A stretch of 35,538 bases of DNA from Geodermatophilus chilensis (GTDB lineage Bacteria; Actinomycetota; Actinomycetes; Mycobacteriales; Geodermatophilaceae), in contig NZ_NVPT01000031.1 of the NCBI RefSeq assembly GCF_002802985.1, positions 1 to 35,538 on the forward strand, written 5' to 3'. The notes under the pieces are model-generated. The model did not search any database and was not told where the DNA came from. It saw nothing but the letters and a program-made list of their open reading frames with translations. Both the position numbers and the translations under genes were made by a program. The stretch's first letter is position 1; every line of letters begins with the position of its first letter. Below are positions 2 through 24,346 of this stretch, in pieces.

Positions 2-79
2 GCCATGATCGGGCTGATGGCCCGCCGACTCGCACCGGCTCCCGGCCGCCGTCCCTGGCAGCCAGCACGAGCTTCCTGA
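2..79 (+). CDS. Possible C-terminal end of a gene entering from the left
   Basis: An open frame enters from the window edge and stops with TGA at 77-79. It encodes about 25 residues, Arg/Pro/Ala-rich (AMIGLMARRL near its start), as is common for the cytoplasmic tail of an actinobacterial membrane protein. The only support is codon plausibility and the strong hairpin that follows at 116-133, which would suit a gene ending here. The family cannot be told from this fragment, and it may be a chance frame. Confidence 0.25.
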   Translation, partial: AMIGLMARRLAPAPGRRPWQPARAS

Positions 80-115
80 GCCCTTTCTCAACACGTTGTC
101 AGCCGGCTCCGGACC

Positions 116-133
116 GGGCCCCGTCCGGGGCCC
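116..133. terminator. GC hairpin between convergent gene ends
   Basis: GGGCCCC and GGGGCCC form a perfect 7-bp stem around a 4-nt GTCC loop. It lies between the end of the left-edge reading frame (79) and the stop of the minus-strand metallophosphoesterase (262). There is no T tract, as is usual for terminators in very GC-rich actinobacteria. Confidence 0.4.
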
Positions 134-261
134 GTGAGCCGGTGGGGTGGTCGACGGCTTCGCAGCGACGGTGGCCCGGCGTCGCGGATGCCGTCGCACT
201 GGGCCTGAACCCTGCGCCGAGGAGGGACCATCCGCGTGCGGGGTCCCTCAGCCGCAGTGGT

Positions 262-1050: not shown

Positions 1051-1223
1051 CAGCTGTCCCGTCCTCCTCACCGGTGCAGGTTCTGGGGACAACGGCGGAC
1101 GTGACTCGCCGACGAAGTCGGTTCACACCATGGCCGGGGGTCCAGGCCGAGAACGCTGGTCACGGGACGACGGTAGGTACAGCTGACACCCATCCATGGA
1201 GTGACAGGCTGTCGCCCGACCTC

Positions 1224-2531
1224 TCAGCCACGGTCGTCGGGCTTCGATGACCGTCCCCGCCGATGCTCCGGGACGTGTTCGCGGATCCAGGCCCCACCGG
1301 CCGCGAACAACGGGAGCGGATCGTTCCACGCCCAGAATGCCTTCGCGTCGCAGTTTGCGGCCCAGACCAGCCACCGCAGCAACGGCACGCCGGCCTGCCT
1401 CGCGGCCAGAACGTCCTTGGGGTGGACCCAGGTCGCAGTGGTCGCGCGGTCGGTCGGGTTGCCGACCCATCGACCACCGATCAGATCCGCGTACACCATC
1501 GCCGGGAGATTGACTCCCACTCTGGCCCCCAGGTGGTGCCAGAGACTGAAACGGGCGTTGATCTCCAAGAGGTACAGCTCCCCATGGGATGAGCGCTTGA
1601 AGTCGAACTTGGCCACCCCACACAGCCCGATCTCGTCGATCAACTTCCTACCGAGGTCCCTGACGTCTGGAGCTTCGGTCAGAGCCAACGCCGTGGAGTG
1701 CCCGAACTCGGCGGGGAGAGTACGGATCTTCCGGCCGGTGAACTCGCCCCGGATCGAACCTCTGCCATCCACGTACACGTGGTAGCTCTCGATCGCGGAC
1801 TCGGGGCCGTCGACACACTCCTGGACGATGAACCGTTGGTCCGACCCTCGGAACCGCTCAGCGAGAGTCCTCAGCTCCCCGAGATCATCGACGCGGAGGG
1901 CCTTGGCAAGCTCAGCGGACGCCCACGTCCTGCTGCGCAGAGCCGGCTTCACGATCAGAGGGAAGACGCGCGCGTCGTAGTCCACATCCGCGAACGCCGC
2001 GGCCGACTCGACGACATGGGTGACGGGAACCGGAAGCGACAGCCGCCCACTCAGGGCGCTGAAGCGCTGCTTGTCCGACACGTCCTCGACCAGATCCGGC
2101 GATGCGACGACGAAGCGGAAGGTCGGTTCGAGCTGAGACCGGTAGCGGGATGTGAAGACCAGAGCTTGATCCGAGCAGAAGAACAGCACCGGCGGGTCGC
2201 CCTGGCGACGACCGAGCTCGAGGAGGCGCTCGAGCAACTGCTCGCTGCACTGCTCGATGGGGAGGTCCCAGTCCCAGTCGAAGGCCTTCGTGGCGAACCG
2301 CGAGTACTGCGCTTCATCATGATGAGGCGCGACGACCACAGAGGGGATTCCCGCGATGGCGAGCGCGCGGATCACCTCCACGCAGCCCGACCCGATCACG
2401 ACTGCGAGCGGCTGTGGACGGTCATGCGCCCCACCGGAGGGGACGGTCTGCAGAACCTGCAGCCGTTGGGCGGTGAACCCGTCGGATACTTCTCGAGGTC
2501 CCCCCGAGTCGGCTCTCGGTGCTCGCTGCAT
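1224..2531 (-). CDS. ATP-grasp carboxylate-amine ligase family protein
   Basis: The product is a 435-residue ATP-grasp enzyme. Such proteins activate a carboxylate as an acyl phosphate and join it to an amine. Residues about 41-150 form the pre-ATP-grasp Rossmann-like domain (AVVIGSGCVEVIRALAIAG). The ATP-binding Lys lies in PLIVKPA (K195), a hinge segment is FIVQEC (about 234-239), and the magnesium site is LLEINARFSLWH (E323, N325). The fold resembles the PylC, D-aspartate ligase and carbamoyl-phosphate synthase-like group, but the exact substrate cannot be read from the sequence. The ATG at 2531 has an AGGGAG site seven bases upstream. Ligases of this kind occur in capsule and exopolysaccharide loci, where they may add amino acids to sugars or wall peptides. 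That role is an inference. Confidence 0.8.
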   Translation of the reverse strand: MQRAPRADSGGPREVSDGFTAQRLQVLQTVPSGGAHDRPQPLAVVIGSGCVEVIRALAIAGIPSVVVAPHHDEAQYSRFATKAFDWDWDLPIEQCSEQLLERLLELGRRQGDPPVLFFCSDQALVFTSRYRSQLEPTFRFVVASPDLVEDVSDKQRFSALSGRLSLPVPVTHVVESAAAFADVDYDARVFPLIVKPALRSRTWASAELAKALRVDDLGELRTLAERFRGSDQRFIVQECVDGPESAIESYHVYVDGRGSIRGEFTGRKIRTLPAEFGHSTALALTEAPDVRDLGRKLIDEIGLCGVAKFDFKRSSHGELYLLEINARFSLWHHLGARVGVNLPAMVYADLIGGRWVGNPTDRATTATWVHPKDVLAARQAGVPLLRWLVWAANCDAKAFWAWNDPLPLFAAGGAWIREHVPEHRRGRSSKPDDRG

Positions 2532-2971
2532 GAGGCGGCTCCCTCATCGCTGGCCGGTCCTGCGGACAGCGCTCAGTGTGCCTCCGCTGGATCCACCGTG
2601 ACGTGCTTGCGGCCGCGGTTCGGAGCTCCATCGCCCCCGCCCTCGGCCACGGCGACCCGCAGGTCCCACCGGGTGGCGTCCGGGCGGCCGCAACCCGGGT
2701 CCAGGGTGGCCACGCGGCCGACCTCGGGGGAGCGTCCTCGATGTGCAGGGCTTCGGCGCCTACCACGTCGACGACGGGGTCGTGGCGCGGGCCGGGCAAT
2801 CAGAGCTGCGAGGGTCCGCCCGGAGGACCCCGCGGACCTGTTGGCCTCCCAGCCACCCATCCTGATCAACACAGGTTCGGAGACCTGCTGGGTCCAGTCG
2901 CGCAGCAGCCCGGTAGCGGGCCGCCGCGCGACTGGACCGACGTCGCCGCCCAGGTCGAGCAACCGGGCGGA
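2532..2971. other. 440-nt spacer without a defensible gene
   Basis: This interval separates the ATP-grasp gene from the lysozyme-like gene upstream of it on the minus strand. Several frames are open, but none has a ribosome site, a recognisable domain or convincing codon use. A short plus-strand stretch around 2737-2800 reads like a decayed coding segment (GFGAYHVDDG) with no start. It may be a gene remnant, which would fit an island with reshuffled cargo. Confidence 0.4.
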
Positions 2972-4853: not shown

Positions 4854-5539
4854 GCAGTGCGGCGTTCTCGGCGGGAGGAACCACGGCTTCTGATCGACCA
4901 CGTGCGGGCAGACAGCGCAGCTGGGAGGCGGCCCCCCGTCGAGGGCTGGACATCATCGGCGCTGCCGCCGTCCTGGTGCTCACGGCCCCCTTGTCCCTGG
5001 CCATCGCCGTCTGGGTCCGGCTGGACAGTCCCGGTCCGACGCTCCTCCGGCAGCAGCGGGTGGGCCTCGGGCGGCGCCCGTTCACCTTCTACAAGTTCCG
5101 CTCCATGCGCGTCGGCGTGGACGACGGGGCGCATCGCGCACTGATCGCCGCGGAGCTGCGCGGCGAGGACACGTGCCGCGGCGGCAGCACGAAGATCGAG
5201 CACGATCCCCGGATCACCCGCTCGGGCCGCTTTCTGCGGCGGACCAGCCTGGACGAGCTGCCTCAGCTGTTCAACGTCCTCCGCGGCGACATGTCGCTGG
5301 TCGGGCCGAGGCCCTGCCTGGACTGGGAGGCCGACATGTTCCCGGCGAAGTATGCCGAACGATTCAGTGTCCGCCCTGGCGTGACGGGTCTCTGGCAGGT
5401 GAGAGGCCGCAGCACCATGGGGACGCTGGACATGCTGGAGCTCGACCTGGAGTACGTGCGCGACCGGCGGCTGGGACGCGACCTGTCGATCCTCATCGCC
5501 ACGATTCCAGCCCTGTTGCGTGGGGACGGCGCCCGATGA
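4850..5539 (+). CDS. Undecaprenyl-phosphate sugar-1-phosphate transferase (bacterial sugar transferase family)
   Basis: The product has 229 residues. It is the polyprenyl phosphate phosphoglycosyltransferase that puts the first sugar phosphate on the lipid carrier and so starts the repeat unit. There is a single N-terminal hydrophobic segment (about residues 33-55, DIIGAAAVLVLTAPLSLAIAV), the arrangement of the short monotopic enzymes rather than the long WbaP type. The family blocks are clear: FYKFRSMR, then SLDELPQLFNVLRGDMSLVG followed by PRP, and a C-terminal PGVTGLWQVRGR. The Asp-Glu of LDELPQ belongs to the conserved catalytic core of the family. The gene leads a plus-strand run of five genes that continues to 11002. 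The sugar transferred cannot be told. Confidence 0.9.
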   Translation: MSSAAFSAGGTTASDRPRAGRQRSWEAAPRRGLDIIGAAAVLVLTAPLSLAIAVWVRLDSPGPTLLRQQRVGLGRRPFTFYKFRSMRVGVDDGAHRALIAAELRGEDTCRGGSTKIEHDPRITRSGRFLRRTSLDELPQLFNVLRGDMSLVGPRPCLDWEADMFPAKYAERFSVRPGVTGLWQVRGRSTMGTLDMLELDLEYVRDRRLGRDLSILIATIPALLRGDGAR

Positions 5540-6629
5540 ATCCCATTCCGGCCCGGTCCTGCATGCCGTCCGCCGGGATTCCCTGCCTGTGACCGCGGTC
5601 CAGCGTGTGGATCCCCGCACCCATCCCCTGTGGCACGAGTTGGCCAGCGGCCCGGGGGGCAGCCTCTTCACGTCCCCGCCGTGGATCACGGCCGTCAGCG
5701 ACACGTACGGCTTCACGCCCTCGGCACGGGTCAGGGTGGACGACTCCGGGAGCCCGGACGCCGGGGTCGCCTGGATCGACGTGAACGACCTGCGCGGGCA
5801 GCGACGCGTGGCTCTGCCCTTCTGCGACCGAGCCGACCCCATCGTCGAGGACCTGACCTCGTGGCAGGCGGTGGCGGCCGACGCGTTGGGCGACGAGGTC
5901 CCGCTCAACCTCCGGTGCCTCGACACGTCGCCGGCCGTCGAGGACCCGCGCTTGAGCACCATCGGGGAGGCGGCGTGGCACGCGACCCCGCTGACCCGGT
6001 CGCTGGACGAACTGCACGCGGCGTTCCGTCCGCAGACCCGGCGGAACATCGCGACAGCGGAGCGAGCCGGCGTGGAGGTGATCCTCAGCGCCGAGGCCGA
6101 GGCGGTGCGGGAGTACCACCGGCTCCACGTCGAGCTCCGCAAGCGCAAGTACCGACTGCTCGCCCAGCCGCGCGAGTTCCTCGATCGCATCTGGAAGGCC
6201 TTCTCCCCTGCAGACGCCATCCGGACCGCGCTCGCCATGGTCGACGGTCGACCGGTCGCCGGCGCGCTGTACCTGGTCTGGCAGGACACCGCGTACTACA
6301 AGTTCGGCGCCTCCCAGGTGGAGTTCCTGCCGCTACGGCCGAACGACGCCATCCACTGGCAGGTGATCCGGTGGGCCCACGGTCGGGGGCTCCGGATGCT
6401 CGACTGGGGGTTGTCCGATCTGGATCAGCCCGGGTTGGGCAGGTACAAGCGCGGATGGGCCAGCGTGGAAGGCCGGATCCGCACGCTCAACGCCGGAGGG
6501 CCGCCTCTCGGCCGCCGGACCGACGTGGAGGAGACCCTGGCTGCGATCACCGACCTCCTCACCGACCCTTCCGTGCCGCAGGCAGTCACCGCGCGTGCCG
6601 GGGCGGCTCTGTACCGGTTCTTCTGCTGA
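5520..6629 (+). CDS. GNAT/FemAB-like acyltransferase (BioF2-like, Acetyltransf_6)
   Basis: The frame encodes 369 residues from GTG 5520, overlapping the previous gene by 20 nt. A GTG at 5589 would give 346 residues and avoid the overlap, so the start is uncertain. The second half carries the family core: FRPQTRRNIATAERAG (about 165-180), a helical segment HRLHVELRKRKY, MVDGRPVAGALYL, and MLDWGLSDLDQPGLGRYKRGW. This pattern is typical of the acetyltransferase-6 and FemAB-related proteins of exopolysaccharide loci. Such enzymes transfer acyl or aminoacyl groups, and here the likely target is a sugar of the repeat unit. The donor and acceptor are not visible. Confidence 0.75.
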   Translation: MGTAPDESHSGPVLHAVRRDSLPVTAVQRVDPRTHPLWHELASGPGGSLFTSPPWITAVSDTYGFTPSARVRVDDSGSPDAGVAWIDVNDLRGQRRVALPFCDRADPIVEDLTSWQAVAADALGDEVPLNLRCLDTSPAVEDPRLSTIGEAAWHATPLTRSLDELHAAFRPQTRRNIATAERAGVEVILSAEAEAVREYHRLHVELRKRKYRLLAQPREFLDRIWKAFSPADAIRTALAMVDGRPVAGALYLVWQDTAYYKFGASQVEFLPLRPNDAIHWQVIRWAHGRGLRMLDWGLSDLDQPGLGRYKRGWASVEGRIRTLNAGGPPLGRRTDVEETLAAITDLLTDPSVPQAVTARAGAALYRFFC

Positions 6630-9554: not shown

Positions 9555-11002
9555 CGGCGACCGCCGAGGTCGACCGTCTGCAGCCGTCCCTCCGGGCCCC
9601 CGGCCGTCGCACCGCTACGTTCTCGCTCGCCGCTGCCGCGCTGGCCGGCCTGATGGCTGCACTGACCGGGCCGATGACCGGGGTGGTCGCCGCGGCGCTC
9701 GGGCTCTTCGCATTGACGGCATGGCGTCCGATCACCGCGACCTACGTCTACCTCGGCACGCTTCCCTTCATCGCCGGGATCCAACGCGGCGATCTGATAC
9801 CCCTGCTCCGTCCGAACGAGGCCCTGCTGGTCGTGCTGACTGCCGGCGTGTGCGCCGGCGGATACGCCCGGTTCCTCATGGGCCGCCCGCTCGCGTTGCG
9901 CCTGCGTCCGCTGGACCTGCCACTCGCGACCTTCGTCATGCTGGCCACACTGTGGCCCGTCGTCTCCCTGATGTTGCGTGGCGCGACCCCGAAGGGGACC
10001 GAGCTCATTGCGTTGCTCCCGGCGGTGAAGCTCGCCGGGCTCTTCCTCCTGGTCCGCATCACCGTGCGCACGGCCGCTCAACTCCGGCGCTGCATCCGTC
10101 TGGTCATCTGGACCGCGGCAGCCCTCGGAGGCATCGCCGTGCTGCAGACGTTGGGCGTCCGTCCCGTGCTGTCCCTCCTGGGCACCTACTGGGGTATTGA
10201 CGCAGGACTCCCGGAATCCAGCGCCCGCGGCTCGGCGACACTCGGGCATTCGATCGCCACTGGCGACTACATCCTGATCGGCCTCGGCCTTCTCATCGCG
10301 GCTGCCGTCCGCGGCCTGATCGGGCGCAAGGAGCGGCTCCTCCTCGGCTTGGTCCTCGGGACGGGGCTACTTGCCTCCGGCCAGTTCTCCACCTGGTTGG
10401 CAGCGCTCGTGGCCGGCGGAATCGTCGCGTACCGGATCCCGGAGGTGCGGCGCCGGGCGATCCGCTTCGCCCCCCTCGCTGCGTGCGCGCTCGTCATCGG
10501 TGCTCCGGCTGTTCTCGGTCGGCTGCAAGGCATAGACGGCGAACTCGGCGTACCGCAGAGCTGGCTCGTCCGCTGGGACAACGTGACCTACCTCTACCTG
10601 CCGCCCCTCTTCGAGGACTACGGATTCGTGATCGGGGTCTCCCCGGACTCCGTGCTCATGGCCCCGGACATCTGGCGGGACGTCATCTGGATCGAGTCGG
10701 GATACCTCCAATTCTTGTGGATCGGCGGGATCCCGTTGCTGGCCGGCTTCATCTGGCTCTCGGTTGCCGTGCTGCGCCACGCGCATGACGTCGCCAGCCG
10801 ACGCGACGCCCTCGGCGCCTGCGGAACCTGTATCGAGATGGCCTGGGGTGTGCTCATGGTCGTCTCGGTCTTGGACCCGCACATCTTCCTACGAGGCACG
10901 GGGGACCTTCTGTTCAGCCTCGTTGCGCTCACCAGCGGCAGGCTCCTCGATGACGAAAGAGCGCGAGGCTCGACTCGACCACGCACGGACGCCCAGGCGT
11001 GA
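9551..11002 (+). CDS. O-antigen polymerase/ligase family membrane protein (Wzy-like)
   Basis: The product has 483 residues and about ten to twelve hydrophobic segments over the whole length, for example AAAALAGLMAALTGPM, LVVLTAGVCAGGYARF and LLLGLVLGTGLLASGQFSTW. A large outer loop near residues 340-395 contains PQSWLVRWDNVTYLY. This layout is that of Wzy polymerases and O-antigen ligases. The start GTG at 9551 overlaps the wzz-like stop as GTGA, so the two are translationally coupled, and the frame upstream of it belongs to the shadow of that gene. It should polymerise lipid-linked repeat units at the outer face of the membrane. It is the last gene of the plus-strand run and meets a convergent glycosyltransferase after 273 nt. 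Confidence 0.82.
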   Translation: MTATAEVDRLQPSLRAPGRRTATFSLAAAALAGLMAALTGPMTGVVAAALGLFALTAWRPITATYVYLGTLPFIAGIQRGDLIPLLRPNEALLVVLTAGVCAGGYARFLMGRPLALRLRPLDLPLATFVMLATLWPVVSLMLRGATPKGTELIALLPAVKLAGLFLLVRITVRTAAQLRRCIRLVIWTAAALGGIAVLQTLGVRPVLSLLGTYWGIDAGLPESSARGSATLGHSIATGDYILIGLGLLIAAAVRGLIGRKERLLLGLVLGTGLLASGQFSTWLAALVAGGIVAYRIPEVRRRAIRFAPLAACALVIGAPAVLGRLQGIDGELGVPQSWLVRWDNVTYLYLPPLFEDYGFVIGVSPDSVLMAPDIWRDVIWIESGYLQFLWIGGIPLLAGFIWLSVAVLRHAHDVASRRDALGACGTCIEMAWGVLMVVSVLDPHIFLRGTGDLLFSLVALTSGRLLDDERARGSTRPRTDAQA

Positions 11003-15349: not shown

Positions 15350-15722
15350 GACGACCACGCTCGAAGACGACCTCTGAAGATCTGGGGGCCGACCGACCTT
15401 CCTGGGGCCGCGGCACTCCGACCACCACAGTGGGTTGCTCACTCCCCGACGGGCGCAGGCGCTGATGAGCGTGAGGGTCCGCGCGGGGCAGGACGGATCA
15501 GCGAACGACTCGACGACACAGAGTCTGCATCGGCCGCCCTCCCTGAAGTGCCACAGGCAGCTCCCCGCGAACGCACACGACACCCGGCACACACCTGGCG
15601 CTCAGCATCGAGAGGCGAGCCCGGTCCCCCACAGCCTCGATCAGCTCGAGCCGGCCCCAAGAGGTTGACCTCGGCACGAGGCCCGCTGGAACGGATCGCG
15701 CCCGTACCCCGCACCGACGCGG
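15350..15722. other. 373-nt spacer between convergent genes, no gene seen
   Basis: The flippase (plus) and the GH5 gene (minus) end towards this interval. The reading frames in it lack ribosome sites and known motifs. The translation just beyond the GH5 stop was checked for a continuation of the glycosidase barrel, and nothing resembling strands 7 and 8 was found in any of the three frames. Confidence 0.4.
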
Positions 15723-17422: not shown

Positions 17423-18367
17423 ATGACGACTCTCTTCGTGGCCTCGACCGGCGGCCACCTGAACGAGCTCGTCACGCTCGCCCCGCGACTGGTGCCCCGT
17501 GACGACGACATCCTCTGGGTCACCCATGACACGCTGCAGAGCAGGTCGCTGCTCGGAGACTCGCAGACCGTCTTCGTGCCCGACCTCGGTTCCCGGGACC
17601 TCCCGGGGACAGCGGCGATGGCCCTGCGGGCCTGGAGGATCCTGCACGAGTACCGACCCGAGCGCGTCCTGAGCACCGGTTCGAGCATCGCGGTGGCTTT
17701 CCTGCCAACGGCTCGCACGTTGGGGATGGCGTGCCATTACATCGAGTCCGGAACTCGGGTGACCGGGCCATCGGTGACCGGTCGCATCCTTCAGCACATC
17801 CCTGGCGTCCACTGCTACACCCAGCACGCACAATGGGCGTCGGGCCGGTGGTCCTGTGCCGGGTCGATACTCGACGGCTTCGAGCAAGAGGCGGTGAACG
17901 CGGCGCCACGGTTGGACCGCGTCGTCGTGACCCTGGGCAGCTGGCGGCAGCCCTTCCGCCGCCTGATCGAGCACTTGATCCCCCTCCTGCCGATTGGAGC
18001 GGAGGTGCTCTGGCAGACCGGCCACACCGACGTCAGCGGTCTGGTGGATCGACCTACCCCGTGGCTGTCGGCAGCCGAGCTGCACGTGGCCATCAGGAAA
18101 GCCGACCTGGTGGTCACGCACGCCGGGATGGGGGCTGTGCTCGACGCCCTCGATGCCGGCCGCTGCCCTGTGGTGGTGCCGCGCGTGCAGGAGCACGGCG
18201 AACAGATAGACGATCACCAGGTCGAGTTGGCCGCCGAACTGGGGCAACGGGGACTGGCCGTGGTGAGCGAACCGGGTGCGCTCACGACAGCAGCTCTGCT
18301 GGATGCCGCGAGCCGGCGCATCACCCGAAGTAGCGATCCCCGCCCGTTCCTCCTCGCACCGCCGTAG
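17423..18367 (+). CDS. Alg13/Alg14-type glycosyltransferase (GT28-like, EpsE/EpsF fusion)
   Basis: The product has 314 residues in two halves. Residues 1-160 resemble Alg14/EpsE, the membrane-associated acceptor half (TLFVASTGGHLNELVTLAPR; LSTGSSIAVAFLPTAR; CHYIESGTR). Residues about 165-300 resemble Alg13/EpsF, the nucleotide-sugar half (VVVTLGSWRQPFRRL; ADLVVTHAGMGAVLDALDAG; CPVVVPRVQEHGEQIDDHQ). The pair is encoded by two genes in many bacteria and is one protein here. ATG 17423 has GGAGAGG directly upstream (17412-17418). It should add the second or a later sugar to the lipid-linked intermediate. The stop is TAG (18365-18367), which matters because TAG is read as selenocysteine in the neighbouring operon. 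Confidence 0.85.
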   Translation: MTTLFVASTGGHLNELVTLAPRLVPRDDDILWVTHDTLQSRSLLGDSQTVFVPDLGSRDLPGTAAMALRAWRILHEYRPERVLSTGSSIAVAFLPTARTLGMACHYIESGTRVTGPSVTGRILQHIPGVHCYTQHAQWASGRWSCAGSILDGFEQEAVNAAPRLDRVVVTLGSWRQPFRRLIEHLIPLLPIGAEVLWQTGHTDVSGLVDRPTPWLSAAELHVAIRKADLVVTHAGMGAVLDALDAGRCPVVVPRVQEHGEQIDDHQVELAAELGQRGLAVVSEPGALTTAALLDAASRRITRSSDPRPFLLAPP

Positions 18368-18833: not shown

Positions 18834-19871
18834 TCAGCGGGTGACGGAGGGCGCGTGGCCGTTCTCCCGCGCGGCGAGCCGCTCGCGCTGCGGGACGACG
18901 GTGTACTTCGGGTCCCTGGCGCTGGCCATGCCCGCCTCGAACACGCCGAAGCGGGTGAGCAGCGACCCGGCCGCGAGCAGCGCGCCCGCGACGACCGCAC
19001 CCGCGCGCCGCCGTCCGGCGACGACGGTGAGCGCCGCCCCGGCCGCCGTGCAGGACTTGGCCGCCCGCAGCAGCCGGCCGGCCTTGCCCTCGTGGTACGG
19101 CTCGCTGACGATGCCGAACTCGTTCTCGACCCGGTGCATCGCGGCCAGCTCGATCGCCGCGCCGGCCACCGCCATCTTGCGGGACGGGCCGGCCTCCTCG
19201 ACCGGGCTGAGGGCCATCGTCAGGCCCCCGCCGGCGGCCATCCCCGAGGCGCCGAAGACGAACGGCAGCTCCTTGTGGGCGGCGTGCCACGACGGGACGG
19301 CGGTGTTCGAGAACAGCACCCCGGTGTAGGTCGCCAGCGGGCCGCCGAACAGCGCCGCGACCACCCCGCCGAAGCGCTTGAGCCGCGGGAACCAGCCCAG
19401 CAGCTCCACCGCCGCCGTCGCCCCGGCCGCCGCGCTGAACGGCGCCAGGATGTACGAGCCGATCGACAGCGGGGACGTCGGCTTGATCACCCGCAGCATG
19501 TGCAGGAACCGCTCGGGCCGGCCCAGGTCGTGGATGAGGAACACCACCGAGGCGACCGCCGCGCCCCCGGAGACGTACCGGGAGTTGCGGGTCAGCGCCG
19601 GCCGGTCGGTGAGGTCGGCGAGCGCCGCCAGGATCGACGACGAGCCGGCCGCGCCACCGAGGAACAGGTACAGCGGCACGTCCGGCGTCTTCCACACCGG
19701 CGGCTTGATGATCGGCCGGCCGTAGTAGGAGGTGAACTCGGCCTCCTCGACCATCGCCACCTCGCCGCCGGGGCGGCCTCCGCCGCGCCGGCGCCGCTTC
19801 TGTCGCTTCTGCGCCGGCGGTCCGTCCGCCCGCCGCCAGCCGGCCCCCGGCGTCGCGATGCCCTCGGTCAC
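18834..19871 (-). CDS. nrfD: NrfD/PsrC-type membrane subunit of formate dehydrogenase
   Basis: The product has 345 residues. A basic, Arg/Lys-rich cytoplasmic N-terminus (about 1-40) is followed by about eight hydrophobic segments. The family start is clear in WKTPDVPLYLFLGGAAGSS (about 61-79), then VFLIHDLGRPERFLHMLRVI and SPLSIGSYILAPFSAAAG, which are signature blocks of the polysulfide-reductase NrfD family. The protein anchors the complex and passes electrons from the ferredoxin subunit to menaquinone. It replaces the haem-b FdnI subunit of E. coli, because no haem-ligand pattern of FdnI is seen. GTG 19871 has an excellent AGGAGG about six bases upstream. It follows the iron-sulfur gene after 73 nt and is the last firm gene of the operon. 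Confidence 0.85.
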   Translation of the reverse strand: MTEGIATPGAGWRRADGPPAQKRQKRRRRGGGRPGGEVAMVEEAEFTSYYGRPIIKPPVWKTPDVPLYLFLGGAAGSSSILAALADLTDRPALTRNSRYVSGGAAVASVVFLIHDLGRPERFLHMLRVIKPTSPLSIGSYILAPFSAAAGATAAVELLGWFPRLKRFGGVVAALFGGPLATYTGVLFSNTAVPSWHAAHKELPFVFGASGMAAGGGLTMALSPVEEAGPSRKMAVAGAAIELAAMHRVENEFGIVSEPYHEGKAGRLLRAAKSCTAAGAALTVVAGRRRAGAVVAGALLAAGSLLTRFGVFEAGMASARDPKYTVVPQRERLAARENGHAPSVTR

Positions 19872-19944: not shown

Positions 19945-21012
19945 TCACCTGGGCCTCCGTGAGCCGAGGACGGCGGACATCGCGACCCCGACGATCATCG
20001 CGGCCGCGGCACCCGCGGCCTTCCACATGGCGGGCAGGTCGCGGGTGGTGACCACCGGGTCCGGCGGCAGCCCGTAGACCTCCGGCTCGTCGAGCAGCAG
20101 GAAGAACGCCCCCGCGCCGCCGACGCCGTCGTCCTCGTCCCGCCCGTAGAGCCGGGCGGTCTCGACGCCCTGCGCCTTGAGCGTGGCCAGCCGCGCATCG
20201 GCGCGGGCCTGCAGCTCGTCGAGGTTGCCGAACTGGATCGACTGGGTCGGACAGGCCGTCGCGCACGCCGGCTGCAGCCCGTCGGTCAGCCGGTCGTAGC
20301 ACATCGTGCACTTGAAGACCCGCCCGTCGTCCTTGCGCTGCTCGATGACGCCGTACGGGCAGGACGGCACGCAGTAGCCGCAGCCGTTGCAGATGTCGCC
20401 CTGGACGACCACGGTGCCGAACTCGGTGCGGAACAGCGCCCCGGTCGGGCAGACGTCCAGGCACCCGGCGTGCGTGCAGTGCTTGCACACGTCCGAACTC
20501 ATCAGCCAGCGGATCTGCTTGTCGGTCCCCGACTGCCCGGTCTGCGGGTCGAACTCCGACAGCGCCTCGGCGTTCAGCACGCTCTGCTGCGCCGTCGCCA
20601 GGCTCTCGTCGTTCGGGCCGTCGGTGACCGAGCGGCCGCTGTCCTGGCGGTCGTCACCGGGCCGGCCGAACGTCGGCATCGGCAGGTCCACGGTGCGGGT
20701 CTGCTCGACGAACGCCACGTGCCGCCAGGAGTTGGCGCCCAGCTGCCCGGTGTTGTCGTAGGACATCCCGGACAGCCCGATGACGTCGCGCACGCCGTGC
20801 GAGTCGTCCATCGGCAGGGTGTTCCACTCCTTGCACGCCACCTCGCAGGCCTTGCAGCCGATGCACACCGAGGTGTCGGTGAAGAACCCCACGCGAGCCG
20901 GGTGGTCGCCGTCGTAGCCGGCCTCGCCCTGCACGTCGGGCAGCGGCCCGAACAGCCGGTTGTCGGGGTCGCGCCCGGTGAAGGCCGGGCTCGCCGAACT
21001 GATCGAGGTCAC
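19945..21012 (-). CDS. fdnH: Formate dehydrogenase iron-sulfur subunit (FdnH-like)
   Basis: The product has 355 residues. Four Cys clusters would bind four [4Fe-4S] centres: CIGCKACEVAC (C50, C53, C56, C60), CKHCTHAGCLDVC, CNGCGYCVPSC, and the split CTMC / CATAC set. This is the FdnH/HybA-type electron conduit between the molybdopterin subunit and the membrane. A hydrophobic C-terminal helix, AAGAAAAMIVGVAMSAVLG, anchors it as in FdnH. An insertion of about 50 polar residues between the first and second clusters (DRQDSGRSVTDGPNDES region) makes it longer than the E. coli protein. GTG 21012 has AGGAGG with a 5-nt spacer and lies 43 nt after the stop of the catalytic subunit. Confidence 0.92.
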   Translation of the reverse strand: MTSISSASPAFTGRDPDNRLFGPLPDVQGEAGYDGDHPARVGFFTDTSVCIGCKACEVACKEWNTLPMDDSHGVRDVIGLSGMSYDNTGQLGANSWRHVAFVEQTRTVDLPMPTFGRPGDDRQDSGRSVTDGPNDESLATAQQSVLNAEALSEFDPQTGQSGTDKQIRWLMSSDVCKHCTHAGCLDVCPTGALFRTEFGTVVVQGDICNGCGYCVPSCPYGVIEQRKDDGRVFKCTMCYDRLTDGLQPACATACPTQSIQFGNLDELQARADARLATLKAQGVETARLYGRDEDDGVGGAGAFFLLLDEPEVYGLPPDPVVTTRDLPAMWKAAGAAAAMIVGVAMSAVLGSRRPR

Positions 21013-21055: not shown

Positions 21056-24000
21056 TCACAGCGTCGATCCCTCGCCGGCCTCGGCCGCGACCGGGTCGCG
21101 GCCGTTGACCCCGACCCGCCCGGACGCGACCCCGGCGCGCTGCCGGTAGCCCTCCACGAAGTCGATGAGCTCCGGGCCGCGCGGACGCCGTCCCGGCCGG
21201 ATGTCGGCGGTGCTGACCTTGTCCTCCTGGATGTGTGTGTTCGGGTCGAGGACGATCCCGAGCAGGTCGTTGGCCGAGTCGCCGGTCGAGATGCCGCTGT
21301 AGGACCAGTGGTAGGGCATCCCGATCTGGTGCACGACCTGGCCGTCCCGCAGCCTGATCGGCCGGATCCGCTCGGTGACCAGCACCTTCGCCTCGATCGC
21401 CGTCCGCGCGCTGACCAGCGTGGCGTACTCGCCGTTGGTCAGGCCGCGCAGCTCGGCGAGCTCCGGGCTGACCTCGACGAAGAACTCCGGCTGGAGCTCG
21501 GACAGGTAGGGCAGCGTGCGGCTCATCCCGCCGGCGGTGTGGTGCTCGGTCAGCCGGTAGGTGGTCACCTGGAACGGGAAGACGTCCGACAGCGGCGGGT
21601 TCTCCCGGTTCCACGGACCCGGGATGCGCTCCACCGTCGGGTTCGCCTGCTGCTTGTACAAGGCGTTCTGGACGACGGACTCCGCCGGCTCGTAGTGCGT
21701 CGGCAGCGGGCCGTCGACCACGCCCGCGGGCGCGAACAGCCACGCCTTGCCGTCGCCCTGCATGACGAACGGGTCGGCACCGCCGATCGCGTCCTGCGCC
21801 CGGGCACCGTCCGGCGGCACGTAGTCCGGCCGCTTGGTCGCCTCGAAGTCCGGGTTGTCCAGACCGGTCCAGCGACCGGCCTCCTCGTCCCAGTAGACGT
21901 ACTTCTTGCGCTCGCTCCACGGCTTGCCGTCGGGGTCGGCCGACGCGCGGTTGTAGAGGATGCGCCGGTTGTACGGCCAGGCCCAGCCCCACTCGGAGGC
22001 CACCGGGCCCTGCTCGCGACCGGGCTTGCGCCGGGCGGCCTGGTTGACCTCGTCGGCGTAGACGCCGGAGTAGATCCAGCAGCCGCACGAGGTCGAGCCG
22101 TCGTCCTTCAGCTCCAGGTAGCCCGACACCGCACGCCCGTCCGGGCCGGTGCCGTTGATCTCCCGCAGGATGGCCTCGGCGCTCGGCTCCTGGTCGTGCC
22201 CGTGGAGCGGGTAGTCCCAGGTCAGGTCGAGCAGCGGGCGGTCCCGCGGGTCGGTGGAGCCGGCCAGCCGCTCGCGCAGGATGCGACCGAGGTGGAAGTA
22301 GAACCACAGGTCGCTCTTGGCGTCGTTCGGCGGCTCGACCGCCTTGTGCCGCCACTGCAGCACCCGCTGGGTCTGGGTGAAGGTCCCCTCCTTCTCCGCG
22401 TGCGTCGCCGCGGGCATGAAGAAGACCTCGGTGCCGATCGTCTCGGGCGCGAGCTCCCCGGTCTCGATCTCCGGCGACTCCTTCCAGAAGGTGGCCGACT
22501 CGATCATCTGCAGGTCGCGGACGACCAGCCAGTCGAGGTTGGCCAACCCGAAGCGGTTCATGCGCCCGTTGGGGTGCCCGACCGTCGGGTTCTCGCCGAC
22601 CAGGAAGTAGCCGGAGACCTTGCCCTTGATCATGTCGGTGATCGTCCGGTACGAGCTGTGGTCGCCGTCGATCTTCGGCAGGTAGTCGAACGCGAAGTCG
22701 TTCTCCGGCGTCGCGGCGTCGCCCCACCAGGCCTTGAGCAGGCTGGTCATGTAGGCGCGCTTGTTGCCCCAGAAGCCGGCCTTGCCGGCCGCGTCGGCGC
22801 AGTACTCGTCGAGGTCGCCGTGCTGCAGCGCGTGCGGCATGGGCAGGTAGCCCGGCAGCAGGTTGTACAGCGTCGGGACGTCGGTCGAGCCCTGGATGCT
22901 CGCGTGCCCGCGCAGCGCCAGGATCCCGCCGCCGGGGCGGCCGATGTTGCCCAGCAGCGTCTGCAGGATCGAGCAGGTGCGGATGTACTGCGCGCCGACG
23001 CTGTGCTGCGTCCAGCCCACCGAGTACACCCACGCCGTCGTCCGCTCGCGGCCGCTGTTCTCGGTCACCCAGCGGGCGACCTGCAGGAAGACCTCCGGCT
23101 CGATGCCGCAGACCTCGGCCACCATCTCGGGCGTGTAGCGATCGAAGTGCCGCTTGAGGATCTGGAACACCGAGCGCGGGTGCTGCAGCGTCTCGTCGCG
23201 CTTCGGCTTGGCCGCGATCGGCGGGCCGCCGCTGCCGGCCGCCTGGGCGTGATCGGTCTTCTTGACCTCGGGGTCCTGCTCCCTGCGGTCCTGCTCCGCA
23301 GCGCCGGCCGGGTCGTCCGAGCCGGAGTGCGGCGGCTCCTCCGGCTCGTACTGCCAGCTGGACTCGTCGTACTGGTTCTTCTCCGGGTCGAACCCGGAGA
23401 ACAGGCCGTCGAGGTCCTCGGAGTCGACGTAGGCCTCACCCACCAGCGCCGCGGCGTTGGTGTAGGCGACGACGTACTCCTTGAAGTACAGCTCGTTGTC
23501 GAGCACGTACCGGATCAGGCCGCCGAGGAACGCGATGTCCGTGCCGATGCGCAGCGGCACGTGCAGGTCGGCGATCGCGCTGGTGCGCGTGAACCGCGGG
23601 TCGATGTGGACGACCTTGGCGCCGCGCGCCTTGGCCTCACTCACCCACTGGAAACCCACCGGGTGGCACTCGGCCATGTTCGAACCCTCGATGACGATGC
23701 AGTCGGAGTTCGCGAGGTCTTCCTGGAAGTTCGTGGCGCCGCCACGACCGAACGAGGCACCCAGACCGGGCACCGTGGCGGAGTGCTATATGCGCGCCTG
23801 GTTCTCGATCTGGATCGCGCCCAGGGCGCTGTAGAGCTTCTTCATGAGGTAGTTCTCCTCGTTGTCGAGGGTCGCCCCTCCGAGGCTCGCTATCCCCATG
23901 GTGCGGTTGACGCGCTTGCCGTCGTTCTCGTCCTGCCAGCCCTTGCGGCGGGCCTGGAGCACCCGGTCGGCGATCATGTCCATCGCCGTGTCGAGGTCGA

Positions 24001-24346
24001 GGTCCTCCCACTCCGTCCCGAACGGACGGCGGTACTTCACCGTCGTCACGCGGGTCGGGCTGGTGACCAGCTGCTTGCTGGCGCTGCCCTTCGGGCACAG
24101 CCGCCCGCGGCTGATCGGCGAGTCCGGGTCGCCCTCGATCTGGACGATCTGCTCGTCCTTGACGTAGATGCGCTGGCCGCACCCCACCGCGCAGTACGGG
24201 CACACGCTCTGCACGACGCGGTCGGCGGTGGCCGTGCGGCTCACCACGTTCTCCGTCGCCTTGCTGCGTGCGGCCGCGCCGCGTCCGAGGGGGTCCGGCC
24301 CGGTCAGCTGCCGGAACACCGGCCACGCGTCGAGCCAGGTCTTCAC
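21056..24346 (-). CDS. fdnG: Formate dehydrogenase catalytic subunit, selenoprotein with TAG-encoded Sec187
   Basis: The product has 1096 residues if the in-frame TAG at 23788-23786 is read as selenocysteine. Residues 1-186 carry the [4Fe-4S] site (C49, C52, C56, C84 in VCPYCAVGC and RGRLCPKG) and end at NQARI. The amber codon then stands exactly where E. coli FdnG has Sec (NQAR-V-U-H), followed by H188 and a perfectly continuing sequence (FGRGGATNFQEDL, then EGSNMAECHPVG). The rest is the molybdopterin-bis-MGD oxidoreductase body and C-terminal cap (HTAGGMSRTLPYLSELQPE, GMPYHWSYSG). The reaction is formate to CO2 with electrons to the iron-sulfur subunit. There is no twin-arginine signal at the N-terminus, unlike E. 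coli FdnG, so the enzyme probably faces the cytoplasm. The GTG 24346 start has only a weak ribosome site. The real stop is TGA. Read without recoding it would appear as two broken ORFs (24346-23786 and 23773-21056). Confidence 0.9.
23741..23788 (-). promoter_or_regulatory. SECIS-like hairpin directly after the amber selenocysteine codon
   Basis: On the mRNA the loop GGUCU (23767-23763) is closed by GUGCCC (23773-23768) and GGGUGC (23762-23757), six pairs including two wobbles. An outer stem of GCCACG (23779-23774) and CGUGGC (23746-23741) closes a 10-nt 3' bulge. The loop begins 18 nt after the UAG. As I recall the E. coli fdhF SECIS, GGUCU stands at the same distance after its UGA and is contacted by SelB. 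Folding energy was not computed. Confidence 0.7.
23786..23788 (-). other. In-frame TAG codon, predicted selenocysteine (UAG recoding)
   Basis: The minus-strand codons read CGC ATA TAG CAC. TAG lies between two halves of a conserved protein that are in the same frame, at the catalytic selenocysteine position, followed by the conserved His. Bacterial selenocysteine is normally TGA. From memory of the literature, UAG-decoding selenocysteine tRNAs and UAG-programmed formate dehydrogenases were described in Geodermatophilus and Blastococcus. Confidence 0.85.

What the first reader, a model, noticed from the sequence alone, without database searches (positions are those of the whole stretch)
23741..23788. 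Selenocysteine encoded by UAG instead of UGA in formate dehydrogenase
The catalytic subunit is broken by an in-frame TAG exactly at the catalytic Sec position. Both halves are conserved and in one frame, the next residue is the conserved His, and a hairpin with GGUCU in the loop lies 18 nt behind the codon. The downstream half has no start with a ribosome site. This is stop-codon reassignment by an amber-decoding selenocysteine tRNA. I recall this having been shown in Geodermatophilus and Blastococcus, so the phenomenon may be known, but it would normally be annotated as a pseudogene or two ORFs.
Basis: partly seen in the sequence, partly recalled or inferred. Interest (0 to 1): 0.95.

Follow-up and report, generated by a model that had tools for sequence, protein, structure and literature searches.

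The report
Amber-coded selenocysteine in formate dehydrogenase
This bacterium most likely reads one UAG 'stop' codon in its formate dehydrogenase gene as the rare amino acid selenocysteine, using a matching transfer RNA; the trick is already published for its bacterial family, so the case looks real but is not new.

Summary
Confirmed. The formate dehydrogenase alpha gene (24346-21056, minus strand) is open except for one in-frame TAG at 23788-23786, which aligns with the selenocysteine of solved formate dehydrogenases. A GGUCU hairpin loop lies 18 nt behind it. The genome has selA, selB, selD and one tRNASec, with anticodon CUA, in one cluster, and two UGSC-family genes with TAG at the U. Of 58 family loci read, 56 have TAG at this codon; the other two, from one genome, lack the region. 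Of 20 loci from other families, 18 have TGA and 2 TGC. The hairpin stem covaries. selB itself ends in TAG, so this is context-dependent recoding, not reassignment. Selenium in the protein is not shown.

The phenomenon is published for this family (Mukai et al. 2016, not held; Santesmasses et al. 2017, passages read): a new member of a known kind.

Outside the window: (i) a Coriobacteriia MAG has a CUA tRNASec and TAG at the apparent Sec codons of grdA and grdB, seemingly an independent switch; (ii) Geodermatophilus sp. LHW52908 has CUA and UCA tRNASec, UAG-Sec genes, a UGA-interrupted AhpD-like gene and one selB.

The parts
21056..24346 (-). formate dehydrogenase alpha subunit, 1096 residues with Sec187 read from TAG (start GTG 24346 not certain)
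   Evidence: translation; NCBIfam NF041513 formate_DH_Act 1917 bits; Pfam PF00384, PF04879, PF01568
23786..23788 (-). TAG, selenocysteine codon 187
   Evidence: sequence; alignment to X in 1h0h_A and 6sdv_A, to C in 9qm0_A; TAG in 56 of 58 family loci read
23789..23791 (-). ATA isoleucine codon just 5' of the Sec codon
   Evidence: ATA in 56 of 56 TAG loci; at all other Ile codons counted in 48 of these genes ATA is 26 of 1968
23756..23774 (-). apical stem-loop of the presumed SECIS, loop GGUCU at 23763-23767
   Evidence: covarying pair +18/+30
19945..21012 (-). iron-sulfur (beta) subunit, next gene downstream
   Evidence: 4Fe-4S dicluster Pfam matches
18834..19871 (-). NrfD-type membrane (gamma) subunit
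   Evidence: Pfam NrfD and NrfD_2

Best explanation
The gene encodes a selenocysteine-containing formate dehydrogenase whose Sec codon is UAG. Ser-tRNASec(CUA) is turned into Sec-tRNASec by SelA with selenophosphate from SelD; SelB brings it to the ribosome and binds the hairpin just behind the codon, so this UAG is read as Sec while other UAG codons still stop. Codon, tRNA, genes, hairpin and their shared conservation are shown here. Charging, SelB binding and Sec in the protein are inferred from the known bacterial pathway. The family probably descends from UGA users: other families of the order use TGA at this codon and three genera placed in the same family have a UCA tRNASec. That order of events is inference; no rooted tree was built.
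For: Single in-frame TAG at the catalytic position. tRNASec(CUA), 65.1 bits against a gathering score of 47, on one contig with selA, selB and selD. Two UGSC genes of this genome read D-TAG-GSC. 101 of 112 family genomes have a CUA tRNASec. In one search every listed FDH match spanning residue 187 contains one TAG (three also contain a TGA). Outside the family, 18 of 20 FDH loci read have TGA and 2 TGC (20 picked by me, the two TGC ones because they had no stop); the listed rows, a truncated list, show no TAG without TGA in another family. Stem covariation. Earlier report for this family.
Against: No protein or selenium measurement. ARAGORN calls the tRNA 'tRNA-Pyl'. The hairpin stretch is no more stable than shuffled sequence. 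The seventh stem pair forms in only 6 of 18 TGA relatives. In G079 both FDH copies have lost codon and hairpin, so the enzyme is dispensable there or the assembly is wrong. Which amino acid is inserted rests on the pathway, not on data.
Confidence: 0.94

Rival explanations
1. A nonsense mutation: the gene is a pseudogene or two separate ORFs.
For: Standard ORF calling gives two pieces, 186 and 905 aa.
Against: TAG at the same codon in 56 of 58 family loci read, down to about 62% protein identity (L170); covarying hairpin; CUA tRNASec in 101 of 112 family genomes.
Confidence: 0.01
2. UAG is read as pyrrolysine.
For: ARAGORN names the tRNA 'Pyl'.
Against: The tRNA matches the tRNA-Sec covariance model above its gathering score and lies with selA, selB and selD; the site is the Sec site of FDH; relatives have TGA or TGC there. 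pylS and pylBCD were not searched for.
Confidence: 0.01
3. UAG is read through, but largely with serine or another residue, so the enzyme is a mixture.
For: Release factor 1 competition and incomplete conversion of Ser-tRNASec are possible; nothing here measures efficiency.
Against: Complete selA/selB/selD set and covarying hairpin.
Confidence: 0.04

Closest known systems
UAG-coded selenocysteine of Geodermatophilaceae (Mukai et al. 2016, Angew. Chem.: not held, known by recall and through citing papers; Santesmasses et al. 2017, PMC5330540: passages read)
   Same: tRNASec with CUA; FDH and UGSC-motif genes with TAG at the Sec site; same family.
   Different: Another genome of the family. Added here: family-wide counts, genera with UCA, covariation test, and cases outside the window.
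UGA-coded bacterial formate dehydrogenases (1h0h, 6sdv; E. coli FdnG/FdhF recalled)
   Same: Sec at the same catalytic site, hairpin just downstream, SelA/B/C/D.
   Different: Codon UAG and anticodon CUA instead of UGA and UCA.
Pyrrolysine recoding of UAG
   Same: An amber-decoding dedicated tRNA.
   Different: Different tRNA type, enzymes and target proteins; here a hairpin and SelB.

Membership tests
Bacterial SelB/SECIS-dependent selenocysteine insertion | in-frame stop codon at a catalytic Sec/Cys site | tested here: met
   TAG, TGA or TGC in one column; X or C in solved structures
Bacterial SelB/SECIS-dependent selenocysteine insertion | stem-loop immediately downstream of the codon | tested here: met
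   stem with GGUCU loop, covarying; energy z-score not significant
Bacterial SelB/SECIS-dependent selenocysteine insertion | selA, selB, selC, selD in the genome | tested here: met
Bacterial SelB/SECIS-dependent selenocysteine insertion | selenocysteine in the protein | not testable with these tools
   needs mass spectrometry or 75Se labelling
UAG-Sec variant of Geodermatophilaceae | tRNASec anticodon CUA | tested here: met
UAG-Sec variant of Geodermatophilaceae | TAG at the Sec site of FDH and UGSC genes | tested here: met
UAG-Sec variant of Geodermatophilaceae | genome belongs to the family | tested here: met
   G000 is unnamed; the tool puts it in one genus with G058 and G062, whose sequence is found in records titled Geodermatophilus sp. 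LHW52908 and Geodermatophilus sp. DSM 45219
Pyrrolysine system | pylS and pylBCD genes | not tested
   no search made

The most novel reading that the evidence does not exclude
The Sec codon is changeable and two Sec codons can coexist. The UGA-to-UAG switch happened at least twice independently (Geodermatophilaceae; a Coriobacteriia MAG with TAG in grdA and grdB), and in Geodermatophilus sp. LHW52908 (G058) one SelB serves both a native tRNASec(CUA) for UAG genes (FDH, UGSC) and a transposase-adjacent tRNASec(UCA) for a UGA-coded AhpD-like CFYU protein that starts about 0.3 kb away.
Probability: 0.55. Interest if true: 0.75.

Novelty: new member of a known kind. Interest (0 to 1): 0.42.

Why it matters
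The window gene is one more instance of a published code variant. It matters for annotation, since standard ORF calling splits this 1096-residue subunit in two. The comparison adds testable material: genera of one family with UCA and with CUA tRNASec, an apparent second lineage that switched codon, and a genome that seems to use both codons. With these one can ask what SelB, the SECIS and the release factors require of the Sec codon itself.

Tried and rejected
Second in-frame stops: one search lists '1 TGA, 1 TAG' in FDH of G024, G009 and G029. A fresh alignment of each showed only the TAG at residue 187. The TGA was not located; I take it to be the natural stop beyond the aligned end.

Stability of the hairpin: the energy test gave no support; covariation was used instead.

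A rule that ATA or A must precede the Sec codon: invariant in FDH TAG loci, but both UGSC genes of this genome have GAC-TAG, so it is not general.

Mobile source of the G058 UGA gene: no match in phages; 327 plasmid records match, all under 60% identity.

Dehalococcoidia CUA tRNASec (L289): 60 kb around its selB showed no read-through ORF that passed a motif filter of mine; left as a lead.

CUA pattern hits that are not tRNASec: L345 matches RF00005, generic tRNA; L291, L337 and L350 have no CUA tRNA by ARAGORN.

A first search for the Sec site in L082 and L091 by exact motif found nothing; it was settled by alignment and by reading the junctions.

Not done: a genome-wide list of UAG-Sec genes, pylS or release factor 1 searches, a rooted tree of the codon switch, a structure model.

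Full report
What is in the window. The minus strand carries a formate dehydrogenase gene set: alpha 24346-21056, an iron-sulfur subunit 21012-19945 and an NrfD-type membrane subunit 19871-18834. Alpha matches NF041513 formate_DH_Act at 1917 bits. It is interrupted once, by TAG at 23788-23786; read through it has 1096 residues with TAG at 187. In the three alignments to solved chains shown the aligned letter is X in 1h0h_A and 6sdv_A and C in 9qm0_A. That X stands for selenocysteine is inferred from the chain names and established knowledge.

Machinery. The tRNASec model gives 8 matches in the genome, two over the gathering score of 47. The best, 65.1 bits, has anticodon CTA; ARAGORN calls it tRNA-Pyl. 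The other seven, including the second one over the cut-off (48.2 bits, Ser-TGA), are read by ARAGORN as Ser (three), Gly, Leu, Thr and Met tRNAs. On the same contig lie selB, selA and, beside the tRNA, selD, each over its NCBIfam cut-off. The genome has two UGSC-family (PF24696) matches, each with one TAG, at D-TAG-GSC. Both are followed by a predicted hairpin, not tested against shuffles.

SECIS. From +15 to +33 there is a stem with a GGUCU loop. In the 56 TAG sequences the seven pairs form in 55 or 56; in the 18 TGA sequences six pairs form in all 18 and the outermost in 6; in the two TGC sequences three of the seven (third, fourth and seventh from the loop) are broken. Pair +18/+30 joins third bases of a Val and a Gly codon: GU 36, CG 10, GC 7, UA 3, always paired; shuffled mean 35.5 of 56, none of 20000 reaching 56; with identical stem-loops counted once 12 of 12, mean 6.1, 8 of 20000. 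Among the TGA sequences alone the test is weak (18 of 18, mean 15.8, 274 of 20000; distinct ones 11 of 11, 2161 of 20000). The sequences are related, so these are not probabilities. Folding energy alone is not significant.

Family. Of 112 family genomes, 101 have a CUA tRNASec: 100 from the 101 CUA tRNAs (G037 gave two) plus G058. Seven had only a UCA one read: G066, G068, G069 (g5), G070 (g6), G072, G073, G074 (g7). In four, 72-82% complete, none was identified: the two G071 matches read were tRNA-Ser; the matches of G067, G097 and G098 were not read. FDH at E<=1e-100 is found in 100 of 112; the seven UCA-only genomes are among the 12 without, so the switch was not seen within FDH. Every listed match spanning residue 187 contains one TAG (three also a TGA). 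Read base by base, 56 of 58 family loci have ATA-TAG; the other two, both from G079, have deletions that end at the same place downstream and remove codon and hairpin. For UGSC, 54 of 112 genomes match; by my count of the 95 listed places 72 contain one TAG, 23 no stop and none a TGA.

Other families. In 298 genomes of the order (family members included), 206 have FDH at E<=1e-150. The rows listed for other families, a truncated list, contain TGA or no stop; one (G321) has a TGA and a TAG. I read 20 loci, picked to span families: 18 TGA, 2 TGC.

A pattern scan of the genome contigs (84,980 species by the tool's description) for CUA tRNASec-like sequence gave 94 stretches, 91 of them with a CUA tRNA by ARAGORN. 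Most titles are Geodermatophilus, Blastococcus, Modestobacter, Klenkia, Trujillonella or Goekera. The pattern fixes two stem bases and the T loop, so CUA tRNASec of other shape would be missed.

Recoding, not reassignment. selB and the window ORF 17423-18367 end in TAG.

An apparent independent case. L354, from a Coriobacteriia MAG (JAUNNF010000009.1), G+C 0.35, has a CUA tRNASec (64.2 bits) that overlaps the end of selB by 16 bases; selA precedes and a selD-like gene follows. On the same contig grdA has ECFV-TAG-TSAG and grdB TST-TAG-GTCTRCGA; Pfam GRDA 266 bits, GRDB 556 bits, the latter ending one residue before the TAG. That these are the usual Sec sites is recalled. Of 56 ORFs kept on the contig 14 end in TAG. 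Against: folding after the two TAGs gave only weak hairpins, so a SECIS is not shown; it is a MAG; whether it also has a UCA tRNASec was not tested. The listings, of which I saw titles and abstract beginnings, name no such case; Mukai 2016 could not be read. A Dehalococcoidia chromosome (L289, OX638292.1) also has a CUA tRNASec match (50.9 bits) and selB; no Sec gene was located.

A genome that may use two Sec codons. G058 is Geodermatophilus sp. LHW52908 (L283 lies letter for letter in L084). It has a CUA tRNASec, FDH with TAG, UGSC with D-TAG-GSC and one selB over the cut-off. It also has a UCA tRNASec of 81.8 bits, the best, near an ORF matching DDE_Tnp_1_assoc. 315 nt from it starts an AhpD-like ORF with CFY-TGA. 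That protein is over the cut-off of TIGR01926 but under that of NF041238 AhpD_rel_CFYUT (51.7 of 175 bits). In the other 19 of 20 loci fetched the aligned residue is Cys. A hairpin is predicted after the TGA, not tested against shuffles. On the same contig a 2.7-kb flank matches five same-genus genomes at 89-91% over about 0.7 kb and less well elsewhere; the first 6 kb have G+C 0.62-0.66, the rest 0.70-0.79 except the 133-base tail, as for an acquired island. Whether both codons are read is not shown.

Literature. PMC5330540, passages: three Geodermatophilaceae tRNASec with CUA; FDH and UGSC as reported by its reference 56; AhpC with Sec-TAG in Blastococcus saxobsidens DD2. PMC5133445, passages: UAG in Blastococcus. 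PMC10778597 and PMC8124441, passages: UAG and other Sec codons, citing earlier work. PMC13188914, passages: UGA as the Sec codon; no hit for Geodermatophil or Blastococcus. Passages of PMC7609411, PMC5756416 and PMC8318568 added nothing on this family.

Verdict. Observation and interpretation hold; the phenomenon is known for this family.

Noticed in passing
L354 (JAUNNF010000009.1, Coriobacteriia MAG); on contig G359:C6 grdB 4895-6208, grdA 10289-10795, selC 15597-15693: CUA tRNASec with selA and selB and TAG at the apparent Sec site of both grdA and grdB: an apparently independent UGA-to-UAG switch.
   Followed up: partly
L083 (G058:C17, Geodermatophilus sp. LHW52908), tRNASec 1173-1263 (-), ORF 1579-2157 (+): UCA tRNASec and a UGA-interrupted AhpD-like CFYU gene in a genome whose other Sec genes use UAG, with a single selB over the cut-off.
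   Followed up: partly
L289 (OX638292.1, Dehalococcoidia) 2742-2827 (-): CUA tRNASec match, 50.9 bits; the genome has selB, but no UAG-Sec gene was located.
   Followed up: partly
window 23791-23789 and the FDH loci: The Ile codon before the Sec codon is ATA in 56 of 56 TAG loci and ATT (15) or ATA (3) in 18 TGA loci, never the common ATC; the two Cys loci have a Val codon. Elsewhere in 48 of these genes ATA is 26 of 1968 Ile codons. Cause unknown; the UGSC genes do not share it.
   Followed up: partly
L082 and L091 (G079:C12 and C4): Both FDH copies of this genome have deletions around the Sec codon with the same downstream end and different upstream ends; gene loss or assembly error.
   Followed up: partly
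L020-L025 and L028 (genera g5, g6, g7): Genomes placed in the same family with a UCA tRNASec; no FDH at E<=1e-100, their Sec genes are unknown.
   Followed up: partly
L345 (JAPPNV010000098.1) 54-140 (+): A generic tRNA with anticodon CUA in a Rhodospirillales MAG, possibly an amber suppressor.
   Followed up: no
L290 and L280: Geodermatophilaceae-type CUA tRNASec in records titled Jatrophihabitans MAG and 'Bacillus sp. AZ43'; the second shares sequence with family genome G030, so the titles are probably wrong or the first is mis-binned.
   Followed up: partly
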